Shown here: piece by piece, positions 19,946-64,000 of the stretch | Numbering within the stretch: the first letter of the stretch is position 1 | Layout: every line of letters begins with the position of its first letter | NCBI RefSeq assembly: GCF_014337195.1 | Contig: NZ_CP060634.1 | Location: 1,550,001 to 1,614,000, forward strand | DNA from: Qiania dongpingensis | GTDB lineage: Bacteria; Bacillota; Clostridia; Lachnospirales; Lachnospiraceae | Length of the DNA stretch: 64,000 nt | Reading direction: 5' to 3' | The notes under the pieces: generated by a model | Seen by the model: only the letters and a program-made list of their open reading frames with translations | What the model was told of the DNA's origin: nothing | Databases searched by the model: none | Program-made: the position numbers and the translations under genes

Positions 19946-19974
19946 ATTCTATACCAAAATACCTTTTTACACAA
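19946..19974 (-). promoter_or_regulatory. Candidate promoter of the GH13 gene
   Basis: Minus-strand TTGTGT (19969-19974) and TAGAAT (19946-19951) with 17-bp spacing, about 65 nt upstream of the ATG and downstream of the ftsH-side terminator. Confidence 0.6.
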
Positions 19975-24287: not shown

Positions 24288-24300
24288 GTGTATGCCTATA

Positions 24301-24826
24301 CCTTTAAATACCTTTCAAACAAACTTTCTTAATCTGGTTTATAAAGCAAGAGGAAATCGGATCCTTCCTCTCGCTCTTTCTTCCGCACCAAAATAAGAGC
24401 TCATTTGTTTTGAAAATCATTGGGGCGATCCACCGCAGCCCGCTGCCATTAGGCGCGCGGGCGTGTGGATATTTAATCCTTTTCTGGAATCTAAGAAATG
24501 AAATTCATCCAACGTGGTGCGGCAGGCAGGGCGCCGACAGAAAGATTTCGGGCCGGCATAAAGGTGAGCGCTGCAGGGCAGAAACCGGTGTTCCCCAGGC
24601 GGAGGGAGGCAGAAACGGAAATACCGATTCCGCTTCTGAGCGAACAGGAGACAGGAAATCATAAAGATTTCCTGTCGACATGTGAGCGGTACTCCTGGAG
24701 CGGGGATAAGACGGTCCCTGCATCGCCAGCGAACCGAAATCGTGACGGTCCGGAACTTCTGCCGGTGACTAACTGGAGCTTAATCGGAACTAATTAAAAA
24801 TGATTCCAAAAAGTATTTTGTATCAT
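24301..24826. repeat. Dispersed structured element, copy 1 (short form)
   Basis: A roughly 526-bp intergenic element, also present at 33601-34329 and 53865-54594. All three copies read in the same direction on the plus strand, against the flanking genes. This copy lacks the roughly 200-bp extra arm of the others: where it would start the sequence is simply GAGGAAATCGGATCC. The core helix pairs 24534-24551 with 24750-24765, and the hairpin 24650-24660 / 24666-24676 is an 11-bp perfect stem. It lies between the spoIIE stop codon, which falls in its last bases, and the tilS promoter. No transposase, tRNA or recognisable known RNA was found in it; its function is unknown. Confidence 0.9.
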
Positions 24827-26487
24827 GCTTTCCAGATCCCGATCGTAAGCACCGTCATATCATCCCGACAGTCTGTGCCGGAGACCATGGCATAATGAAG
24901 AATCTCATCTGCCACATCCTGAAGATTTTCCCCGGATGTACAGGACAGGACCTCTCTCATGGTTTCCTCTTTATCCTCTCCCTCCAGAGCGTCCAGAACG
25001 CCGTCCGTCACCATGACGATCTTATCTCCGTCACGCAGCTGTTTTTCCAGCCTTTCCGGTTCGGCCCGGCTGATGACTCCCGCCGGCAGTCCGTCCGCTT
25101 TTATGGTCTCAATTTCCCTTCCCCGTTTTAAAAAAGTCGTCACTCCCCCGGCTTTTACAAATTCACAGACTCCAGAATACAGATCTGCCACCGCCAGATC
25201 AACGGTGATGGGACGCTGTTCCTGATCCTTGAGCAGCAGAACAGCATTCATCAGACGGATGGCTCTTTCCAGGCTGAAGCCGCTGGATAAAAGCTGTTCA
25301 GCAAGCTCCATCACCACTTCGCTGTCCCGAAACGCCCTCCTGCCGGATCCCATGCCATCGGCGACACCGAACAGAAGACGTCCGTCCGGAATGGAACAGA
25401 AGGTGAAGTTATCCCCTGACAGCTCTTCTCCTTCTCTGGACGCCCTGGCTATGCCATGGAGCATCATGTAGCCCGGCGCTTTTATCAGCCTTACCGTACA
25501 GGGCTCTTTTGTCACGATCCTTCTGCTGTCCAAGGACGGAAGAAATTTTTCCTCCACAGTCCGGCTGACGGTCTCCGCCAGTTCCCTCACTGTCATACAG
25601 CGGTTTCCCGATGCCTGGACGGTGAGAAACGCTTCCCGCTTCTCATTCTCCTTTTCCAGGATCATGATATTCTCTACCTTTATCCGTCTGAGCCTCAGCT
25701 CTCTGCGAATCTTGTCCTTATATTGATCTGAGATATCCTCTGTCGCTTCGATGTCCTCAGAAAGCTCAGAAAGGATCCGCTCCATCTCTTTAAAGCCTTC
25801 CGCCACGGCTTCCCGGCATTCCTCATAACGGCCCTTCCAGACCAGATTCTCTAACGGCAGGGCTATCTCTCCTCCCGATACCGACGGAATTCCTTCCTCG
25901 ACTACAAACTCATCCGGCTCCCTCGAAAAGCTTGTCCCGCCGCACTGGGAAAATGTACTCGCCAGTTTTTCCATGGAATCCGATACAGACTGCACCCGCT
26001 GTGCCGCCGTCCGTTCCCTTCCCGGCATATAAAATGGAAATGGCCTAACTGCCGCCTGCCTTACTTCTGTCTTCCGGCACAGGCTCCTCGGTATCAGCAG
26101 AAAGACCGCAGCCGCAATAAAAAACTCCACGATTCCCTGATCGATCTCCTGGGGAAGATAGACGATTCCTGCCGCCGCCGCCCCCGCCAGGAATCCCAAG
26201 GTACTGCCGGCACGGCCGAGACTTCGGAAAACTCCCGCCAGCACGCCCGTCAGACAAAGCATTCCCATCACTGACAAATCTCCCTGCCAGATGGTTTCTA
26301 TGATTCCACAGCCTGTCCCCGCTACCGCGCCGATTCCTGCTCCAAATTTATATCCGACAAACAATACACTGAAATACATTCCGGTCCTCACGATCGAGGC
26401 CAGTGTCTTCCCCTGGGCCAGAAACGCTGTCAGCATAAAGCCAAAGGCCAAAGCCAGGACCGCCCGCACAAAAGTCTCCTTTTTCAT
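24823..26487 (-). CDS. spoIIE: Stage II sporulation protein E, serine phosphatase (short form)
   Basis: SpoIIE dephosphorylates the anti-anti-sigma factor SpoIIAA, releasing sigma-F in the forespore. The 554-aa protein has an N-terminal membrane region (about residues 8-135, several hydrophobic spans), a linker with coiled-coil character, and a C-terminal PP2C-type domain with the metal-binding Asp in GVADGMGSGRRA and in VMVTDGVLD. It is much shorter than the roughly 800-aa B. subtilis protein, mostly through a smaller membrane part. The ATG at 26485-26487 has GGGAGGT upstream; the open frame extends further but through the promoter. Two Spo0A boxes sit at its promoter. The stop codon lies within the end of the dispersed element. 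Confidence 0.93.
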   Translation of the reverse strand: MKKETFVRAVLALAFGFMLTAFLAQGKTLASIVRTGMYFSVLFVGYKFGAGIGAVAGTGCGIIETIWQGDLSVMGMLCLTGVLAGVFRSLGRAGSTLGFLAGAAAAGIVYLPQEIDQGIVEFFIAAAVFLLIPRSLCRKTEVRQAAVRPFPFYMPGRERTAAQRVQSVSDSMEKLASTFSQCGGTSFSREPDEFVVEEGIPSVSGGEIALPLENLVWKGRYEECREAVAEGFKEMERILSELSEDIEATEDISDQYKDKIRRELRLRRIKVENIMILEKENEKREAFLTVQASGNRCMTVRELAETVSRTVEEKFLPSLDSRRIVTKEPCTVRLIKAPGYMMLHGIARASREGEELSGDNFTFCSIPDGRLLFGVADGMGSGRRAFRDSEVVMELAEQLLSSGFSLERAIRLMNAVLLLKDQEQRPITVDLAVADLYSGVCEFVKAGGVTTFLKRGREIETIKADGLPAGVISRAEPERLEKQLRDGDKIVMVTDGVLDALEGEDKEETMREVLSCTSGENLQDVADEILHYAMVSGTDCRDDMTVLTIGIWKA

Positions 26488-33499: not shown

Positions 33500-33600
33500 G
33501 AGAAGAACAAGGCAGCGAAAGTGTCCGACTTTGCACAGAAAAGAACAAGAGGAACAGCGTCGGCAGAAGTTCCAGGCAGGCACACTCCGTGCGGCAAGGT

Positions 33601-34329
33601 ATTCCTTTGAATACCGTTTAAACAAGTTTTCTTTGTCAGATTTACAAGGCAAGAGGAAATCCGATTCCATCCAGGCGGTTCGCTGGTAGCCGTAACCAGA
33701 ATTTTTACGGCCTCCAGTCGGTCCTTTCCAACTGACATGGATAAATCGATATTTTTCCATGTCAGATTCCAACAAAAATCCGCATGATATGCGATTTTTG
33801 CCTCCCTGCGTCCGGGAAAATTCTGCTAACGCCTTTGCGGCGCTCGCCTTACGATGGAATCGGATTGTTCCTCCTGCTCTTCCTGCCGCACCGAGATATA
33901 CTTCCGCTTGTTTTGAAAACCATTGGAGCGGACACTGCAGCCCGCTGCGGTACGCGCGCGGGCCGTGTGGATATCCACTCCTTTTCTGGAATCAAAGGAA
34001 CGGAAAGCATCCGAAAAGGTGCGGCAGTCAGGATACCGGCAGAAAGATTCCGGGCCGGCCTAAAGGTGAGCGCCGCAGGGCAGGGGCCGGTGTTCCCCAA
34101 ACGGAGGGAGGCAGAAACGAAAAATACCGATTTCGTTTCTGAGCGAACAGGAGACGGGAAATCATAAAGATTTCCCGTCGACATGTGAGCGGTACTCCCG
34201 GAGCGAGGATAAAGCGGCCCCTGCATCGCCAGCGAACCGAAATCGTGACGGTCCGGAATTTCTGCCGGGGCTTAACTGGAGCTTAAGGGAAATTTACTAG
34301 AAATGATTCCAAAAAGTATTTTGTATCAT
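33601..34329. repeat. Dispersed structured element, copy 2 (long form)
   Basis: A 729-bp intergenic element, near-identical in plan to copy 3 and to copy 1 except for an extra arm at 33661-33863. The core is closed by a 16-bp helix with a 2-nt bulge (34036-34053 with 34253-34268). Hairpin 34153-34163 / 34169-34179 differs from copy 1 by a paired A-T to G-C change. The rest of the 33430-34444 gap holds the kinase promoter, two imperfect direct repeats at the element's edges, and the prsA terminator. No gene is convincing here; short frames shift between copies. Confidence 0.9.
33661..33863. repeat. Optional arm of the dispersed element (copy 2)
   Basis: A 203-bp segment bounded by the inverted repeat CCGATTCCATC and GATGGAATCGG. 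It is present in copies 2 and 3 and absent from copy 1. Inside, TGACATGG (33733-33740) pairs with CCATGTCA (33757-33764), and AAAAATC (33774-33780) with GATTTTT (33793-33799). Confidence 0.8.
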
Positions 34330-34397
34330 ACCCAAGGGCATCCCTTAATTCATGCCCTCCGGACGGGCGCACTTCGTGCGGCGAGGTATATAACAAA

Positions 34398-44238: not shown

Positions 44239-45509
44239 TGTGCCTCACCTGCCTTTATAATAAAGTCTCCGCTGCCCAGCTCTCCGTCAGGGTAATCCGA
44301 TGCGGCTGTCACACCGGAAATGGCCGTATTCCTTCCCACCGTCACACCGTCAGGGATATAGGAATCCTCTCCCACGGTCACCAGGTCAAACGCATATACT
44401 CTGGGGTCAAGCTTGCTGGGAGCAAAGTCTCCTGTACCCAGCCGTACATTGGCTCCCACCTCCGTGTTGTCCGCTATGATCGCCTTGTCAACAACCGTGC
44501 CGTCGCCGACCACCACATCCTGCATCAGGATCGAATCCCGTATCACAGCTCCTTTTCCAATCTTCACGCCGGCGCCTATTACCGAGTTATATACCTCCCC
44601 GTATACTTCCGCCCCCTCTGCGACGATGCTCCGCTCAATGACAGAATCCGAAGATATGTATTGAGGCGGAAGAATATCGCTCTTTGTATAAATTTTCCAG
44701 AACTCTTCGTAGAGATTGAACACAGGAATGATATCAACCAGCTCCATGTTCGCTTCCCAGTAGGATCCCAACGTCCCAACGTCCTTCCAGTAGCCGTTGT
44801 ACTCATAAGCAAAAATCCGGTCCCCGCGGCTGTGGCAGTACGGAATCACATGCTTGCCGAAATCACAGCCAGGCTCATCGGACATTGTGATAAGGGCCTC
44901 TTTTAATACTTTCCAGCTGAAGATATAGATGCCCATGGAAGCCAGATTGCTTCTGGGCTTGGCCGGTTTTTCCTCAAACTCCGTTATCCGGTTATTTTCA
45001 TCCGTGATGAGCACACCGAAACGGCTTGCTTCCTCGATGGGCACAGGCAGCGCCGCGATGGTGATATCTGCGTTATTCGCCTTGTGATAATCGAGCATCA
45101 CTTCATAATCCATCTTATAGATATGGTCTCCGGATAAGATCAGAACGTATTCCGGATTATACGCCTCCATATATTCCAGATTTTGATAAATAGCATTGGC
45201 AGTGCCGGTGTACCACTCACTGTTTGTACTCTTTTCGTAAGGCGGCAGCACCGTCACCCCGCCCACATTGCGGTCCAGATCCCACGGGATGCCGATTCCG
45301 ATGTGCGCGTTCAGCCGAAGCGGCTGATACTGAGTCAGGACACCCACCGTATCTATGCCTGAATTGATACAATTGCTCAGCGGAAAATCAATTATCCGGT
45401 ATTTACCGCCAAACGCTGTCGCCGGCTTGGCCACCTTTGACGTCAATACGCCCAGCCTGCTGCCCTGGCCTCCTGCCAGAAGCATCGCAATCATTTCTTT
45501 TTTAACCAC
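44235..45509 (-). CDS. glgC: Glucose-1-phosphate adenylyltransferase catalytic subunit
   Basis: Makes ADP-glucose from ATP and glucose-1-phosphate, the committed step of glycogen synthesis. The 424-aa protein has the catalytic [18 protein letters not shown] loop, the [12 protein letters not shown] metal site, the [19 protein letters not shown] sugar-phosphate region and a beta-helix C-terminus. The start is taken as GTG at 45507-45509, with GAGGTGATAGC upstream; this gives the standard family length. An ATG five codons later is the alternative. Confidence 0.95.
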
Positions 45510-49988: not shown

Positions 49989-50017
49989 AGGGTATCATCG
50001 ACACCGCGGAAAGTCAA
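49989..50017 (-). promoter_or_regulatory. Candidate prs promoter
   Basis: Minus-strand TTGACT (50012-50017) and TACCCT (49989-49994), 17-bp spacer; the -35 overlaps the last codons of the dnaC/dnaI-like gene. Confidence 0.45.
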
Positions 50018-51018
50018 GATGTTTTCCCGCTCAATCTTTTTTTTATCCGGATATCCGCTCCAAACAGCGGAATCACGCGGTAGCTGCTGATGATCCTGGA
50101 AAAAATTCTCTCAGAATAAATATCCCGCAGCTCATTCATGGTCAGGTTCGTGGAGATGATCGTCGCCCTCCCCCTCAGCTGCCTTGTGTTGATGCAGTAA
50201 AAAAGCTCTGAATTGGTAAAGCTGTTGGTGAGCTCTGTCCCCAGATCGTCAATGATCAGCAGGCTGCATTCCAGGATGCCCTTATATTTTTCTTCCCGCT
50301 CTTCACCGCCATGGTCAAACCTCTTGTCGGAAATCAGCTGGAACAGATCGGAAGAAGTAAGATACAGCACCGCCTCAGCCCGGTCTAAAAGCGCCTTGGC
50401 AATGCAGTTGGTGAGGAATGTCTTTCCAGTGCCGGCCGGACCGGTGAACAGGAGATTCCCCCCGCGCTCATGAAATCCCGCCGCATAATTCCGGCATTCC
50501 TCCACCACAGCCCTCATATACTCATGCTGGCTGATTCCTTTCTCTTCATTCACAATAAGAGTCTTATCATAATATTCAAAACTGAGACAGTCAAAATTCT
50601 CAGCCTGCAGAACCCGCTCCAGATTAGACTGCCCGTATAAAAGCGCGATTTCGGCCTGCTTCAGACATTTACATTTCCTGCCGCCCACATAGCCGGTGTC
50701 CCTGCACTCCGAACATGTATATACCGGTTCCATATAATCGGGAGCAAACCCTCCCATGGCGAGCAAAGTTTCTTTGCTCTCCCGCAGCTCCTTCAGCTTG
50801 AATCTGAGGCGCTCAAGCGCCCCCTCCTCCCCGTCCAGCAGCCGTCTGGCCTGCTCCACGGATATGGCGCTGATCTCCCTGTCGAATTCTTCCATCTGGG
50901 GCAGCGCGCGGTACACCTCGTCGATCCGCTCATCCTGCCTTCGTTTACTGTCCAGCTGTTTCTTCTGATATACCCGCATCAGCGCGTCATACTGGGAATT
51001 ATTCAGTGCCACATCCAT
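50014..51018 (-). CDS. DnaC/DnaI-like replicative helicase loader
   Basis: An AAA+ ATPase that loads the replicative helicase at origins and restart sites. The 334-aa protein has an N-terminal helical domain, a Cys-rich patch YTCSECRDTGYVGGRKCKC (zinc finger, about 117-135), Walker A GPAGTGKT, Walker B LLIIDDLGTE and an arginine-finger region (ERIFSRIISSYRVI). It lies directly after dnaD, giving a primosome pair. It corresponds to DnaI in Bacillus and DnaC in other nomenclature, so no symbol is given. Confidence 0.9.
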   Translation of the reverse strand: MDVALNNSQYDALMRVYQKKQLDSKRRQDERIDEVYRALPQMEEFDREISAISVEQARRLLDGEEGALERLRFKLKELRESKETLLAMGGFAPDYMEPVYTCSECRDTGYVGGRKCKCLKQAEIALLYGQSNLERVLQAENFDCLSFEYYDKTLIVNEEKGISQHEYMRAVVEECRNYAAGFHERGGNLLFTGPAGTGKTFLTNCIAKALLDRAEAVLYLTSSDLFQLISDKRFDHGGEEREEKYKGILECSLLIIDDLGTELTNSFTNSELFYCINTRQLRGRATIISTNLTMNELRDIYSERIFSRIISSYRVIPLFGADIRIKKRLSGKTS

Positions 51019-53769: not shown

Positions 53770-53864
53770 ACTGTTTCCTTTCTCTATTTCCCTCAATTTC
53801 ATCTCTCATCCATATGATCGCCGGCGCTTTCCGGCTCCGTCTCATCAGACATATATGATTCACT

Positions 53865-54594
53865 ATTCCTTTGAATACCGTTTAAACAAGTTTTCTTTGT
53901 CAGATTTACAAGGCAAGAGGAAATCCGATTCCATCCAGGCGGCTCGCTGGCAGCCGTAACCAGCATCTTTATGGCCTCCGGTCGGTCCTTTCCAACTGAC
54001 ATGGATAAATCGATATTTTTCCATGTCAGATTCCAATAAAAACCTGCATGAGATTCGGTTTTTACCTCCCTGCGGCCGGGAAGATCCTGCTAACGCCCTG
54101 CGGCGCTCACCTTACGATGGAATCGGATCCTTCCTCTTGCTCTTCTTCCCGCACCGAAATAAGCTCTCACTCGTTTTAAAAGCTATTGGGGCGGTCCACC
54201 GCGGCCCGCTGCCGTAAGGCGCGCGGGCCGTGTGGATATCCAATCCTTTTCTGGAATCAAAGGAACAAAAATCGTCCGAAATGGTGCGGCAGAAAAGATA
54301 CCGGCAGAAGGATTCCGGGCCGGCCTAAAGGTGAGCGCCGCAGGGCGGCGGCCGGTGTTCCCCAGGCGGAGGGAGGCAGAAACGAAAAATACCGATTCCG
54401 TTTCTGAGCGAACCGGAGACGGAAAATCATCCTGATTTTCCGCCGACATGTGAGCGGTACTCCCGGAGCGGGGATAAAACGGCCCCCGCATCGCCAGCAA
54501 GCCAAAATCGTGACGGACCGGAACTTCTGCCGGTATTAAACTTAAGCTTAAGCGGAGCTAACTAAAAATGATTCCAAAATGTATTTTGTATTAT
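53865..54594. repeat. Dispersed structured element, copy 3 (long form)
   Basis: A 730-bp copy, same orientation and plan as copy 2. Core helix 54301-54318 with 54518-54533: relative to copy 2 an A-T pair has become G-C. Hairpin 54418-54428 / 54434-54444 shows a further paired change and one mismatch. It fills most of the 918-bp gap between murC and queT and ends 6 nt before the queT terminator. Nothing else recognisable lies in the gap except a short stretch next to murC. Confidence 0.9.
53925..54126. repeat. Optional arm of the dispersed element (copy 3)
   Basis: A 202-bp segment between CCGATTCCATC and GATGGAATCGG, matching 33661-33863. The hairpin AAAAACC (54038-54044) / GGTTTTT (54057-54063) replaces AAAAATC/GATTTTT of copy 2, a compensatory change. 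Confidence 0.8.
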
Positions 54595-54599
54595 AGCAC

Positions 54600-60444: not shown

Positions 60445-61701
60445 CTACTCCACTTTTGTTAAAAACGTCATCTGAGACGCGTCACCGCCGGTCAGCATAA
60501 GATTCAGATCGCGAATCAGCTCCCCGACTATGTCCGTTGCCTGGTACAGCGACTTTCCTGTGGTCCAGACGTTTCCCTCCTTCACCGCTTTGAAGTCCGA
60601 AAACATCTCGCTTTTGGCCAGCAAATCCTCCACACCGGCCAGAGGCGCGTCGATGGACGCGTTATAGACCAGATAGTCCGCATCCACGGCAGTCGCGTAA
60701 AATTCCTCCATGGTCAGAGGGATCGATGTCTTTCCAGACTCATCCTGAAGGTTGGAAAACGCATAGCGCCCTCCTCCGATCTCAATCATCTTCGGAATAT
60801 AATCTGTGGGCTTCCTTACCACAACAGAACCGTCTGTGCTGACGTAGAAATACGCCACAGTCTTTTCCGTGTTTTTAAAATCTTTCAGATCGCTGATCAC
60901 CTTGGCCTGCTGGTCAAAAAATGCTTTCGCTTCGTCTTCCTTATCTACCATAACACTGTATGCCTTGATCCACTCCGTTCTTCCCAGCGGATGGCTCTCG
61001 TAGCTGGAGCGGTCGATGAACACCGGGATATCCAGCATTTCGATCATCTCCTGCACCTTCGGGGAATGAAGAATCATAGTCGACTCAATGGCCAAATCGC
61101 ACTGTTCATTCACCAGAAGCTCATAATCCGGTTCGCTGTATTTTCCGGCAAAGAGGACGTCTCCACTTTCCATGGCCTTCACAGCGTCGTCTATGTACCA
61201 GCCAGAGGCCTGGGTACCACTCAAACGGATAGCATCCAGCGCATTCATGGAAGCAAAAAGGGCCATGGCTGAGGTCGCCGCCAGATAAATCTGATCCAAC
61301 GGCTGCTGCAGAACAATGATGTCCTCGTCCAGGCCATCCGGAACCGGCTTGTCTTCCGGGATCACCAGATATCTGGCGCTGTCATGGACATCGATCAGTC
61401 CGTAGCCGCCTTCATAATAATACACATCAAAGCACTCCGCATAGGTGAGCTCCATGGTTGACTCATAGGTAAGTCCTGCAATTTCCGGCGCGTCGCCGCT
61501 CTCTCTGGCCGCTGTCGTCACCTGTGTCTCTCCCTGACTGCTTTCCGTCCCGGCCTCTGTCTTCGTCTCCGCAGCGGTTTCCTGTGTCTCCGGGTCCGTC
61601 TGCTTTTCTGTTTCCTTTTCCGCTTTCTGTCCGCAGCCCCCCAAAAGGAGGACTGCAGCCAGTATCAGCGCCGTAACCTGATATAACTTCTTCTTCATCA
61701 T
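60445..61701 (-). CDS. Iron/heme-type ABC transporter substrate-binding lipoprotein
   Basis: A 418-aa precursor with a lipoprotein signal ending LLGGC (lipidated C23), a Thr/Glu-rich linker (about 28-75) and a TroA/FecB-like two-lobe binding domain joined by one helix. Its first ATG overlaps the stop of the upstream surface protein (ATGA). Its N-terminal lobe (PEIAGLTYESTMELTYAECF... FIDRSSYESHPLGRTEWIKAYSV) is clearly related to the C-terminus of that upstream protein, so one arose from a duplication. The ligand is inferred from the transporter type. Confidence 0.88.
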   Translation of the reverse strand: MMKKKLYQVTALILAAVLLLGGCGQKAEKETEKQTDPETQETAAETKTEAGTESSQGETQVTTAARESGDAPEIAGLTYESTMELTYAECFDVYYYEGGYGLIDVHDSARYLVIPEDKPVPDGLDEDIIVLQQPLDQIYLAATSAMALFASMNALDAIRLSGTQASGWYIDDAVKAMESGDVLFAGKYSEPDYELLVNEQCDLAIESTMILHSPKVQEMIEMLDIPVFIDRSSYESHPLGRTEWIKAYSVMVDKEDEAKAFFDQQAKVISDLKDFKNTEKTVAYFYVSTDGSVVVRKPTDYIPKMIEIGGGRYAFSNLQDESGKTSIPLTMEEFYATAVDADYLVYNASIDAPLAGVEDLLAKSEMFSDFKAVKEGNVWTTGKSLYQATDIVGELIRDLNLMLTGGDASQMTFLTKVE

Positions 61702-64000
61702 CTGTTCTCCTGCTGCGCTGCTTTTTTCACAGCCGCCTCAAAAAGCTGGTCCGCTTTTTCCTCACAGCTGAAAAGTACGCCGTATACTTTGATCCACTCG
61801 TATTTGGCCAGCTCAGTCTCTTCATCGGCAGACCGGTCGATGATCACCGGGATATTAAACATGGCAAGGTTCCCGGTAAGCTCCTCGAAGCGTTCCGTCT
61901 GCTCTTTGGCCGTAAGCTCTTCGGCCTCTGCTCCGTTCATAACAGCTTCGCTGTTTTTCTCCGCGGCCTTTTTCTGGCCGTCTGTTTCTTCATCTTCTTT
62001 TTCCCTGGGAAGCAGTTCACCGGGCAGAACAGCCAGATTGGTCTCCTTTTTGATCAGAGCCTTATAATCGGGCAGGTCATACTGTCCGCCGAAAATTACC
62101 TCAGCTTCCTCTTCTCCATCCTTCACGGTCATTCTTTCCGCGACAGAATCAATACCACAGTCCTTCTGCTCACAGCCCACCGCTGCCAGATTGTCGAGGA
62201 TATCCAGTGTCTCCATCATCTCCAGAATCTCATCGGAGGCGGCATAGGCTTTGTCCGCAGGCATCCTCACGATGATCATATCCTGCTCCAGGCCGACCGG
62301 AATCTCGGTGTCCTCCGGGACAAGGAGATATTTCACGACATTTCCTTTGTAAAGCTCTGCGGCGATCTCACCTTCGCTGGGGACAAGTTCCTCCCCATCC
62401 TCCGTGATGATCTCCGTTTCGGCAGATGCTTTTGTTTTTTCCTGACCGTCACTCTCCGCAGACTCTGCCTGACTGCCGTCCTCTTCTTCCGCCAGCTTTT
62501 CCGGGTCCCTCGCCGTATCCTTCGTCAAATCAATTTCCAAAAGGACAATGTCCTGATCATAGTGATAAATCTTGAAATATTCCGCGTAATCCAGCTTTGT
62601 CTCAGACTGATACTCCAGCCCGATAATCTGGGGAGCCGTCTCATCCAGCTTCTCATTGCTGTTCTCCCCGGCTGCTTCTCCATTTGCTGCCGCCGCCAGA
62701 TAAATGAAAATGGTATATTCAATCTCGTGGGTCGCCGACATTTTCGTCGTCATTCCAAAAATCTTATTATTTTTGTTCAGTGCTACAGGGATGACAACAG
62801 TGGCCGTGCCGCCGCTCTTAGTGGTATAGTAAGTGTTTCCGTTGGCTTTCACATATTGATAAGAGTCACTGCTGAATACCAATGTCGCATAGGCCTGCCC
62901 GTTCTTTACGGTGATCTTGTTGCAGGTTATTTTTACTCTGCCCGTACCGCCGGACCAGGAAAATTTATCCGGCTTATAGACGCCGTCCGCCAGAGTCGTC
63001 GCACTGTCCACCCGTCCGGTGGAACCGCCGGTATCAGACTCATACTTAGACTCATTATCGGCCTTTCCGTCATTGTCAGGGATCACATCCGGCTGGTTAC
63101 CGTCGTCTTTGCCGTTATCGGGATCTACAGGCGTTACCGGCTCATCTCCTCCGCCGGAGATATCGCCGATCTTCTTCATCGTCTCTGACCGGAAAGTCAA
63201 GGTCCTGTCATACCACTTGTCATTCTTGATGGAATGTGCCGCGACCGCGATTCCCTTGTCCAAGGCCTCCACAGGAATCGTATAGGTATACTTGCCATTG
63301 GCATCCTTCACAAAAGGAGCCCAGGAGGACTTATCCGCCTTTTCTGCGTCAGCCGCGGTCCCCACATACAGATAATCGTAGCCAGTCCCGCTCAGGGTGA
63401 GCACCGCGTTCATCTTTCCGTTCTTTACAGTCAGAACGCATTCCACCACCCGGAACATGGCCGCGCTGGAATCTGCTTCGATGGTATAGACGCCGTCTGC
63501 TATGGCCGGCGTGACCGCTTCCATGCCTTCGGACCGGAAATTCAAAGTCCTGTCATACCATTTGTCATTCTTAATGGAATGTGCCGCGACCGCGATTCCC
63601 TTGTCCAAAGCCTCCACAGGAATCGTATAGGTATACTTGCCATTGGCATCCTTCACAAAAGGAGCCCAGGAGGACTTATCCGCCTTTTCTGCGTCAGCCG
63701 CGGTCCCCACATACAGATAATCGTAGCCGGTCCCGCTCAGGGTGAGCACCGCGCTCATCTTTCCGTTCTTTACGGTCAGGACGCAGTCCACCACCCGGAA
63801 CATGGCCGCGCTGGAATCCACAGTCACTTTGTAAGTTCCGTCAGACGGAACGGTGGGATCTACGGGTTCCGGGTCCGGATCCGGCAGATCACCCGTTCTA
63901 TCCAAAATGCCATTTATAAAGAAACTTCCCGACTTTTCTGACCAGGAGCTGCTTTTTTCCACATGAACCACATAACTGATCTCTTTTCCCAGATCGGCGG
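61698..64000 (-). CDS. Large surface protein: beta-sandwich repeats plus half a substrate-binding domain (5' end missing)
   Basis: At least 766 aa; the frame is open at the right edge, so the true start and signal peptide lie outside the window. In order: the end of a domain ISYVVHVEKSSSWSE with a NEAT-like look, a Pro/Asp linker, two nearly identical repeats of 115 residues (SSAAMFRVV...KWYDRTL), an Asp/Gly linker, a third divergent repeat (KFSWSGGTGRVKITCNK), and a C-terminal region of about 300 aa homologous to the N-terminal lobe of the adjacent binding lipoprotein, interrupted by acidic low-complexity inserts. It is likely a heme or iron relay at the cell surface that hands its ligand to the importer. 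The heme link is inferred; the domain family is not certain. Confidence 0.75.
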   Translation of the reverse strand, partial: ADLGKEISYVVHVEKSSSWSEKSGSFFINGILDRTGDLPDPDPEPVDPTVPSDGTYKVTVDSSAAMFRVVDCVLTVKNGKMSAVLTLSGTGYDYLYVGTAADAEKADKSSWAPFVKDANGKYTYTIPVEALDKGIAVAAHSIKNDKWYDRTLNFRSEGMEAVTPAIADGVYTIEADSSAAMFRVVECVLTVKNGKMNAVLTLSGTGYDYLYVGTAADAEKADKSSWAPFVKDANGKYTYTIPVEALDKGIAVAAHSIKNDKWYDRTLTFRSETMKKIGDISGGGDEPVTPVDPDNGKDDGNQPDVIPDNDGKADNESKYESDTGGSTGRVDSATTLADGVYKPDKFSWSGGTGRVKITCNKITVKNGQAYATLVFSSDSYQYVKANGNTYYTTKSGGTATVVIPVALNKNNKIFGMTTKMSATHEIEYTIFIYLAAAANGEAAGENSNEKLDETAPQIIGLEYQSETKLDYAEYFKIYHYDQDIVLLEIDLTKDTARDPEKLAEEEDGSQAESAESDGQEKTKASAETEIITEDGEELVPSEGEIAAELYKGNVVKYLLVPEDTEIPVGLEQDMIIVRMPADKAYAASDEILEMMETLDILDNLAAVGCEQKDCGIDSVAERMTVKDGEEEAEVIFGGQYDLPDYKALIKKETNLAVLPGELLPREKEDEETDGQKKAAEKNSEAVMNGAEAEELTAKEQTERFEELTGNLAMFNIPVIIDRSADEETELAKYEWIKVYGVLFSCEEKADQLFEAAVKKAAQQENR
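63187..63844 (-). repeat. Tandem 345-bp coding repeat
   Basis: Two copies offset by exactly 345 bp (115 codons), nearly identical in DNA over about 310 bp. The third repeat in the protein has diverged. This points to a recent in-frame duplication or ongoing homogenisation. Confidence 0.9.

What the first reader, a model, noticed from the sequence alone, without database searches (positions are those of the whole stretch)
33601..34329. Three-copy dispersed intergenic element with a conserved, covarying RNA-like fold
Three elements (24301-24826, 33601-34329, 53865-54594) share sequence from end to end and carry no persistent reading frame. A long helix with a GA bulge closes a 232-233-nt core in each: CCGGCAGAAA-ga-TTCCGG with CCGGAATTTCTGCCGG in copy 2, where copy 3 changes one A-T pair to G-C on both sides. 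The hairpin at 34153-34179 (24650-24676 and 54418-54444 in the others) shows two independent paired changes. Three copies in 64 kb implies many per genome. I could not match it to RNase P, tmRNA, SRP, 6S or group I/II intron signatures. It may be an undescribed large structured RNA or a structure-selected mobile element.
Basis: partly seen in the sequence, partly recalled or inferred. Interest (0 to 1): 0.88.

Follow-up and report, generated by a model that had tools for sequence, protein, structure and literature searches.

The report
High-copy two-armed palindromic gut-bacterial repeat
A non-coding DNA element of about 730 bases, made of two mirror-image halves that each keep a set of hairpins, is repeated in dozens of places in a human gut bacterium, most likely as a passenger mobile element; whether it also acts as an RNA is not shown.

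Summary
The three copies are real (24297-24827, 33600-34330, 53864-54595), show no sign of coding, and match no Rfam family. The window very probably lies in the 3.08-Mb Qiania dongpingensis chromosome (Lachnospiraceae). ORFs annotated across the element as 'hypothetical proteins' mark at least 51 copies there and 14 in 'Lacrimispora sp. NSJ-141'. Each arm keeps related hairpins with compensating changes between arms (26 of 94 pairs, against 16.1 in shuffles and 4-8 with slid partners). Copy 1 has lost most of its left arm. Strand-neutral pairs tolerate G.U-type mismatches about equally in both senses (13 against 11 cells), so pairing is conserved but nothing shows that one strand is a functional RNA. 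Best reading: a new family of non-autonomous, long-inverted-repeat (MITE/foldback-like) element, moved in trans by an unidentified transposase, sometimes abutting a 62-nt palindromic repeat. The 'large structured RNA' reading is possible but unproven.

The parts
33600..34330 (.). Copy 2, full element (two inverted arms)
53864..54595 (.). Copy 3, full element
24297..24827 (.). Copy 1, deletion derivative lacking about 209 columns of the left arm; its right tip overlaps the stop codon of the SpoIIE-like gene
33600..33965 (+). Left arm of copy 2, read tip to centre
33966..34330 (-). Right arm of copy 2, read tip to centre; homologous to the left arm in inverted orientation
   Evidence: in copy 2 alone the local score (28) does not exceed the largest of 300 shuffles (29), in copy 3 it does (47 against 27)
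33940..33963 (.). GC-rich hairpin at the centre of the inverted repeat
   Evidence: sequence; folds
33659..33865 (.). Left-arm module, closed by ATCCGATTCCATC (33659-33671) with GATGGAATCGGAT (33853-33865)
   Evidence: sequence; folds
33732..33765 (.). Left-arm hairpin, probable counterpart of 34153-34179
   Evidence: sequence
33774..33799 (.). Left-arm hairpin, counterpart of 34112-34141
   Evidence: helix 10: 5 of 11 pairs with changes on both sides
34036..34268 (.).
34112..34141 (.). Right-arm hairpin
34153..34179 (.). Right-arm hairpin with two compensated pairs among the window copies
33980..34319 (.). Outer helix of the right arm, 33980-33995 with 34303-34319
   Evidence: in the left arms 2 of the 11 pairs tested break in 7 cases (helix 1: 76.4% of cells paired)
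34311..34330 (-). Right tip, TATGATACAAAATACTTTTT
33600..33619 (+). Left tip, TATTCCTTTGAATACCGTTT
34328..34389 (+). R60: 62-nt palindromic unit abutting the right tip; 20 bases of its far end (33583-33602, 90% identical) abut the left tip

Best explanation
A new family of non-autonomous mobile element of the MITE/foldback type. It is about 730 nt, with two diverged inverted arms covering its whole length and weakly similar ~20-nt tips (TATNNNNNNNAATACNNTTT) that start and end in TA in two of three copies. Inferred mechanism: a transposase encoded elsewhere acts on the tips and inserts copies into intergenic sites, probably TA, sometimes at the end of a 62-nt palindromic repeat. The hairpins in each arm are kept by selection on DNA structure (transposase or host-factor recognition, or single-stranded hairpins) or on the transcript when neighbouring genes read through. 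Shown here: repetition, architecture, absence of a coding signature, conserved pairing. Inferred: mobility, the transposase, the TA target, and any function.
For: At least 51 loci in one genome and 14 in a second species. Three intergenic copies with the same ends. Self-inverse architecture: the profile of the copies hits their own reverse complement with 71, 56 and 29 bits; arms of copy 3 are 205/341 identical, local score 47 against a largest of 27 in 300 shuffles. A deletion derivative, copy 1. No codon bias; no Pfam hit at E 0.1 for the 7 of 107 translated relatives that were tested. Paired changes between copies and between arms. Pairing close to strand-symmetric. R60 at both tips of copy 2 and at a tip of another copy.
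Against: No transposase with these tips was found in the window (of 29 window proteins scanned, none is a transposase; one, 50014-51018, matches IstB_IS21 but its place next to a DnaB_2 protein fits the DnaC/DnaI helicase loader), and the genome could not be searched. No empty site was seen. Tip similarity is weak: 11 of 20 in copy 2, reached by 355 of 17,732 window 20-mers of similar A+T. In copy 2 alone the arm-to-arm score does not exceed shuffles (28 against 29). Size over 200 bp and GC of 48-52% depart from the usual MITE description. The conserved multi-hairpin arms are more elaborate than that kind needs.
Confidence: 0.62

Rival explanations
1. A functional structured RNA spread in many copies: each arm, transcribed from its tip inwards (or the reverse), makes a folded RNA of about 350 nt that acts in trans or stabilises or insulates neighbouring mRNAs.
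For: Compensated pairs between copies and between arms. Folding z -6.8 to -8.0. In the window's right arms strand-neutral pairs fit G.U on the minus strand in 7 cells and on the plus strand in 3; in translated copies pair 34154-34178 is A.C 17 times and never G.T.
Against: Over all five arms the G.U balance is 13 to 11, over translated copies 30 to 25. No Rfam match. Promoter-like sites near chance. One predicted helix (34106-34109 with 34196-34199) is contradicted by the translated copies. A G-test ranking of column pairs put only one predicted pair (34121-34133) among the 40 printed.
Confidence: 0.2
2. The paired changes are a by-product of replication: template switching in imperfect palindromes copies one arm of a hairpin onto the other, so hairpins look conserved without selection.
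For: Pairing is close to strand-symmetric, as expected for a DNA-level process; stable hairpins in the element.
Against: The two long arms, which could also template each other, have drifted to about 60% identity, while consensus local helices keep 87.1% of cells standard. Several variable pairs are intermediates (A.C or G.T) rather than perfect.
Confidence: 0.11
3. An ordinary coding remnant: the element is a decayed gene and the 'hypothetical proteins' are its remains.
For: NCBI annotates ORFs across the element in both species.
Against: Differences fall evenly on codon positions; a one-base gap separates copy 1 from copies 2 and 3 within the ORF; no Pfam hit for the 7 relatives tested.
Confidence: 0.02

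Closest known systems
Bacterial MITEs and small mobile repeats (Correia/NEMIS, RUP, CIR, RPE; review PMC2229807, passages read; names other than CIR and RPE recalled)
   Same: Non-coding, intergenic, repeated, inverted-repeat ends beginning with TA, predicted RNA folds; read-through transcripts of such repeats are reported to influence neighbouring mRNAs (passage)
   Different: Described there as under 200 bp and A+T-rich; this one is about 730 nt at 48-52% GC, and each arm keeps its own set of hairpins
bcr1-bcr18 repeats of the Bacillus cereus group (PMC6542083, passages read)
   Same: Dispersed non-coding repeats, up to 130 copies of bcr1 in a genome, mobile-element features
   Different: 100-400 bp, specific to the B. 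cereus group, TTTAT motif; no sequence relation was tested
Foldback elements of eukaryotes (recalled)
   Same: Long inverted arms covering most of the element
   Different: Different domain of life; here the local hairpins are better kept than the arm-to-arm match
REP palindromes as insertion targets (PMC1525189, abstract read)
   Same: A mobile element abutting a short palindromic repeat (R60)
   Different: R60 is not shown to be a REP; the direction of targeting is unknown
IS110/IS1111 bridge or seek RNAs (PMC11208160, PMC11187229: search listing with start of abstract) and HEARO/omega RNAs (recalled)
   Same: A structured non-coding end of a mobile element
   Different: No covariance-model match; inverted two-arm layout; no associated protein found

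Membership tests
MITE / small non-autonomous mobile repeat | Repeated, non-coding, no protein of its own | tested here: met
   at least 51 loci, no codon bias; no Pfam hit for 7 tested relatives
MITE / small non-autonomous mobile repeat | Terminal inverted repeats | tested here: met
   whole-element inverted repeat; the tips themselves are only weakly alike, 11 of 20 in copy 2
MITE / small non-autonomous mobile repeat | TA at both ends / target duplication | tested here: inconclusive
   TA at both ends in copies 2 and 3, CA at one end of copy 1; duplication cannot be told from the element's own ends
MITE / small non-autonomous mobile repeat | Under 200 bp and A+T-rich | tested here: not met
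   531-732 nt, GC 0.484-0.515 against window 0.507
MITE / small non-autonomous mobile repeat | Mobilised by the transposase of a related autonomous element | not testable with these tools
   genome not held; no transposase among the 29 window proteins scanned
Known structured RNA (Rfam) | Covariance-model match | tested here: not met
   0 matches at gathering threshold over the window; only chance-level matches at E up to 5 or 10 over the three copies
Functional non-coding RNA | Covariation beyond chance | tested here: met
   with p of 0.05-0.1 in several of the sub-tests
Functional non-coding RNA | G.U tolerated in one sense only | tested here: inconclusive
   7 to 3, 30 to 25, 13 to 11
Functional non-coding RNA | Discrete transcript | not testable with these tools
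   no RNA-seq available

The most novel reading that the evidence does not exclude
A passenger element whose two inward-facing arms each specify a structured nucleic acid that a trans-acting recombinase or nuclease reads as a recognition or guide module, directing insertion next to the R60 palindrome: a guide-RNA-like or hairpin-addressed MITE.
Probability: 0.08. Interest if true: 0.82.

Novelty: new variant of a known kind. Interest (0 to 1): 0.45.

Why it matters
It adds a large repeat family to gut Lachnospiraceae: three copies take up about 3% of this 64-kb window, and the family is being annotated as dozens of false 'hypothetical proteins'. Its two diverged arms, each keeping related hairpins, give a natural experiment on whether hairpins in mobile repeats are kept as DNA or as RNA, and a starting point for finding the transposase that moves it.

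Tried and rejected
Known RNA families: rejected. Relatives in phage, plasmid and viral collections: none that stands up. The full element had no blastn match in plasmids or phages; the right arm at E up to 5 had 18 plasmid records with matches to 5-9% of the query, judged chance; tblastn gave one weak plasmid hit (Subdoligranulum, E 0.3) and none in phages; R60 gave none. Four DNA motifs of the element and one of R60 gave 0 viral contigs; the protein-pattern scan matched 20 stretches, none confirmed. The Subdoligranulum stretch was fetched and is not in the nhmmer hit list. The single genome-contig scan, with one 18-base motif, gave two stretches in unrelated phyla, judged chance: nhmmer hit only 46 nt of L001 around the selecting motif and nothing in L002. 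That scan found neither Qiania nor NSJ-141, so genomes lacking that exact motif, or not held, were missed.

Coding: rejected. IS605-like end hairpins, group II introns, HEARO and TnpB guide RNAs were considered from memory and left for lack of any match.

Covariation from reverse-translated proteins: useful for single pairs, but the ranking of all column pairs was dominated by subfamilies and frame errors, with one predicted pair among the top 40. The first tally without cleaning was 64 against 62 for the two G.U senses; cleaning and restricting to strand-neutral pairs left 30 against 25. Strand is therefore called unresolved. One nhmmer run printed nothing because of a format fault and was repeated. 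The third protein search scored only the 7,996 candidates sharing most words. The literature searches showed no listed paper that describes this element; I read passages or abstracts of six papers only.

Full report
What is there. Three related stretches lie at 24297-24827, 33600-34330 and 53864-54595 (self-BLAST; nhmmer). Over aligned columns, copies 2 and 3 agree at 647 of 730 bases, copies 1 and 2 at 445 of 520, and copies 1 and 3 at 437 of 520; copy 1 lacks about 209 columns. All three lie between genes on the minus strand: TilS and a SpoIIE-like protein around copy 1, a hybrid histidine kinase and a peptidyl-prolyl-isomerase-like protein around copy 2, MurC and QueT around copy 3. The right tip of copy 1 overlaps the stop codon of the SpoIIE-like gene.

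Where it is from. ORFs of the window that run across the element (P0010, P0011, P0038, listed without a source because the window encodes them) sit, in the protein collection, on a contig of 3,084,832 bases. The named rows on a contig of that length are Qiania dongpingensis. That places the window, very probably, in this human gut Lachnospiraceae chromosome (taxonomy; the species description gives strain NSJ-38 and 49.22% GC: PMC8140505, passages read). It is an inference from contig length plus the window's own ORFs.

Copy number. Translating the plus-strand frame through the right arm and searching proteins gave 83 rows. By my count of that table, 53 are on the 3,084,832-base contig, 15 in 'Lacrimispora sp. 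NSJ-141', 2 on other NCBI contigs and 13 on ENA metagenome contigs. Of the 53, 51 cover one and the same column (34072), hence, read in one frame, at least 51 different loci; of the 15, 14 do. Strain NSJ-141 is the type strain of Lientehia homins in PMC10989990 (passages read); that the two names mean one strain is inferred. Two searches with the minus-strand frame gave 9 rows (2 of them Qiania) and 23 rows (8 of them shared with the first, in which only the 7,996 best candidates were scored). These 'proteins' do not look like genes: differences between window copies are even over codon positions (copy 2 against 3, right arm 16/13/15), a one-base gap separates copy 1 from the others within the ORF, and the 7 of 107 translated relatives that I gave to Pfam had no hit at E 0.1.

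Searching the window with a profile of the three copies also hits the reverse complement of the copies themselves: 54439-54057 with 71 bits, 34134-33795 with 56 bits, 24669-24362 with 29 bits. The element is an inverted repeat of two arms of about 365 nt that meet at a GC-rich hairpin (33940-33963 in copy 2). Global alignment of the arms of copy 3 gives 205 identities in 341 aligned columns. Local scores between arms were 47 within copy 3 (largest of 300 shuffles 27) but 28 within copy 2 (largest 29), so in copy 2 alone the match is at the noise level. Both tips begin TAT (CAT at the right tip of copy 1) and share AATAC and TTT at the same distances: 11 of 20 positions in copy 2, a level reached by 355 of 17,732 window 20-mers of similar A+T. 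The tip pattern with up to one mismatch occurs 8 times in the window, expected 0.81; six are the six tips, but the pattern was made from them.

Pairing. Single-strand folds of the 350-nt right domain beat 100 of 100 shuffles on either strand (z -7.5 and -8.0), and the left part beats 100 of 100 on the minus strand, z -6.8 (copy 2 only). Structures predicted from one copy and tested on another show more compensated pairs than permuted substitutions: 18 tests of the right domain gave 2-6 observed against 0.2-1.7 expected, p from 0 of 5000 permutations to 0.094; 6 tests of the left part gave 2-3 against 0.3-1.0, p 0.004-0.07. For five arms aligned tip to centre (3 right, 2 left; the left arm of copy 1 was left out because its module is deleted), a consensus of 94 pairs has 87.1% of 466 cells in standard pairs and 26 pairs with changes on both sides. 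Shuffles averaged 78.4% and 16.1 (0 of 500 reached either); the count of further pair types was less clear, 55 against 50.9, reached by 37 of 500. Slid partners gave 39.5-53.2% and 4-8 pairs. Since that structure was derived from the same alignment, I also took a structure from the right arms only and tested it on the left arms. There 35-44 of 81-103 pairs are Watson-Crick against 27-34 expected, p 0.001-0.026; compensated pairs 11-14 against 6-8, p 0.005-0.10. So the arms share related hairpins beyond chance, but fewer than half of the right arm's pairs carry over exactly to the left arm in this alignment.

RNA or DNA. If one strand were the functional RNA, G.U pairs should be tolerated in one sense only. 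Among the three right arms, pairs predicted on both strands showed 7 cells fitting G.U on the minus strand and 3 on the plus strand, of 243. Translated copies gave 30 against 25; 15 of the 25 come from two pairs that look unpaired (34106-34199 and 34108-34197), and 17 of the 30 from one pair (34154-34178). Over all five arms, tip-to-centre sense against the other, it is 13 against 11 cells, 10 against 6 pairs. Strand is unresolved. Promoter-like sites number 1, 1 and 3 around copies 2, 3 and 1 against 0.8, 1.1 and 1.0 expected. One predicted helix, 34106-34109 with 34196-34199, is contradicted by the translated copies, and a ranking of all column pairs by association put only one predicted pair among the 40 printed.

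The R60 neighbour. Immediately outside the right tip of copy 2 lies a 62-nt palindromic unit (34328-34389); 20 bases of its other end, 90% identical, abut the left tip. In another copy (P0107) the same unit follows a tip (21 of 26 residues); in P0061 the agreement runs a few residues past the tip, and P0094 agrees weakly (E 0.001). It is not at the tips of copies 1 and 3. Pattern and BLAST searches found no other convincing R60 in the window. Either the element favours R60 ends or R60 favours the element's tips.

Interpretation. The simplest account is a non-autonomous mobile element with long, old inverted arms, moved in trans and kept in structure. Mobility itself is inferred from repetition, fixed ends and a deletion derivative; no empty site was seen. 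It resembles MITEs and bcr repeats in how it would work, but does not meet the size and composition part of the MITE description I read (size and GC), so I file it as a variant. Nine literature searches listed no paper that describes it; they cover open-licence papers only, and I saw listings, abstracts and passages, not whole texts.

Noticed in passing
34328-34389 and 33583-33602: R60, a 62-nt palindromic unit with ATACC/GGTAT ends that abuts element tips in copy 2 and in at least one other copy (P0107); possibly a second, smaller mobile repeat or an insertion target.
   Followed up: partly
P0010-P0092 (relatives of the frame through 24498-24797 and 33967-34167): Dozens of 'hypothetical proteins' annotated in Qiania dongpingensis and Lacrimispora sp. 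NSJ-141 are ORFs across this repeat, probably false genes.
   Followed up: yes
63184-63473 and 63529-63818: Two 290-nt direct repeats, 96% identical, inside the gene at 61698-63971, whose product has a borderline NEAT domain match.
   Followed up: no
24823-24827: The right tip of copy 1 overlaps the stop codon of the SpoIIE-like gene, so the insertion sits exactly at the gene's end.
   Followed up: no
54058-54113 with 54328-54383: A 56-nt stretch of the left arm is 77% complementary to the right arm in copy 3, so a giant-hairpin fold competes with the local folds; the copy-3 plus-strand minimum-energy fold uses it.
   Followed up: partly
19948-19967 and 45142-45161: Two tip-like 20-mers with one mismatch away from the three copies; probably chance.
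   Followed up: no
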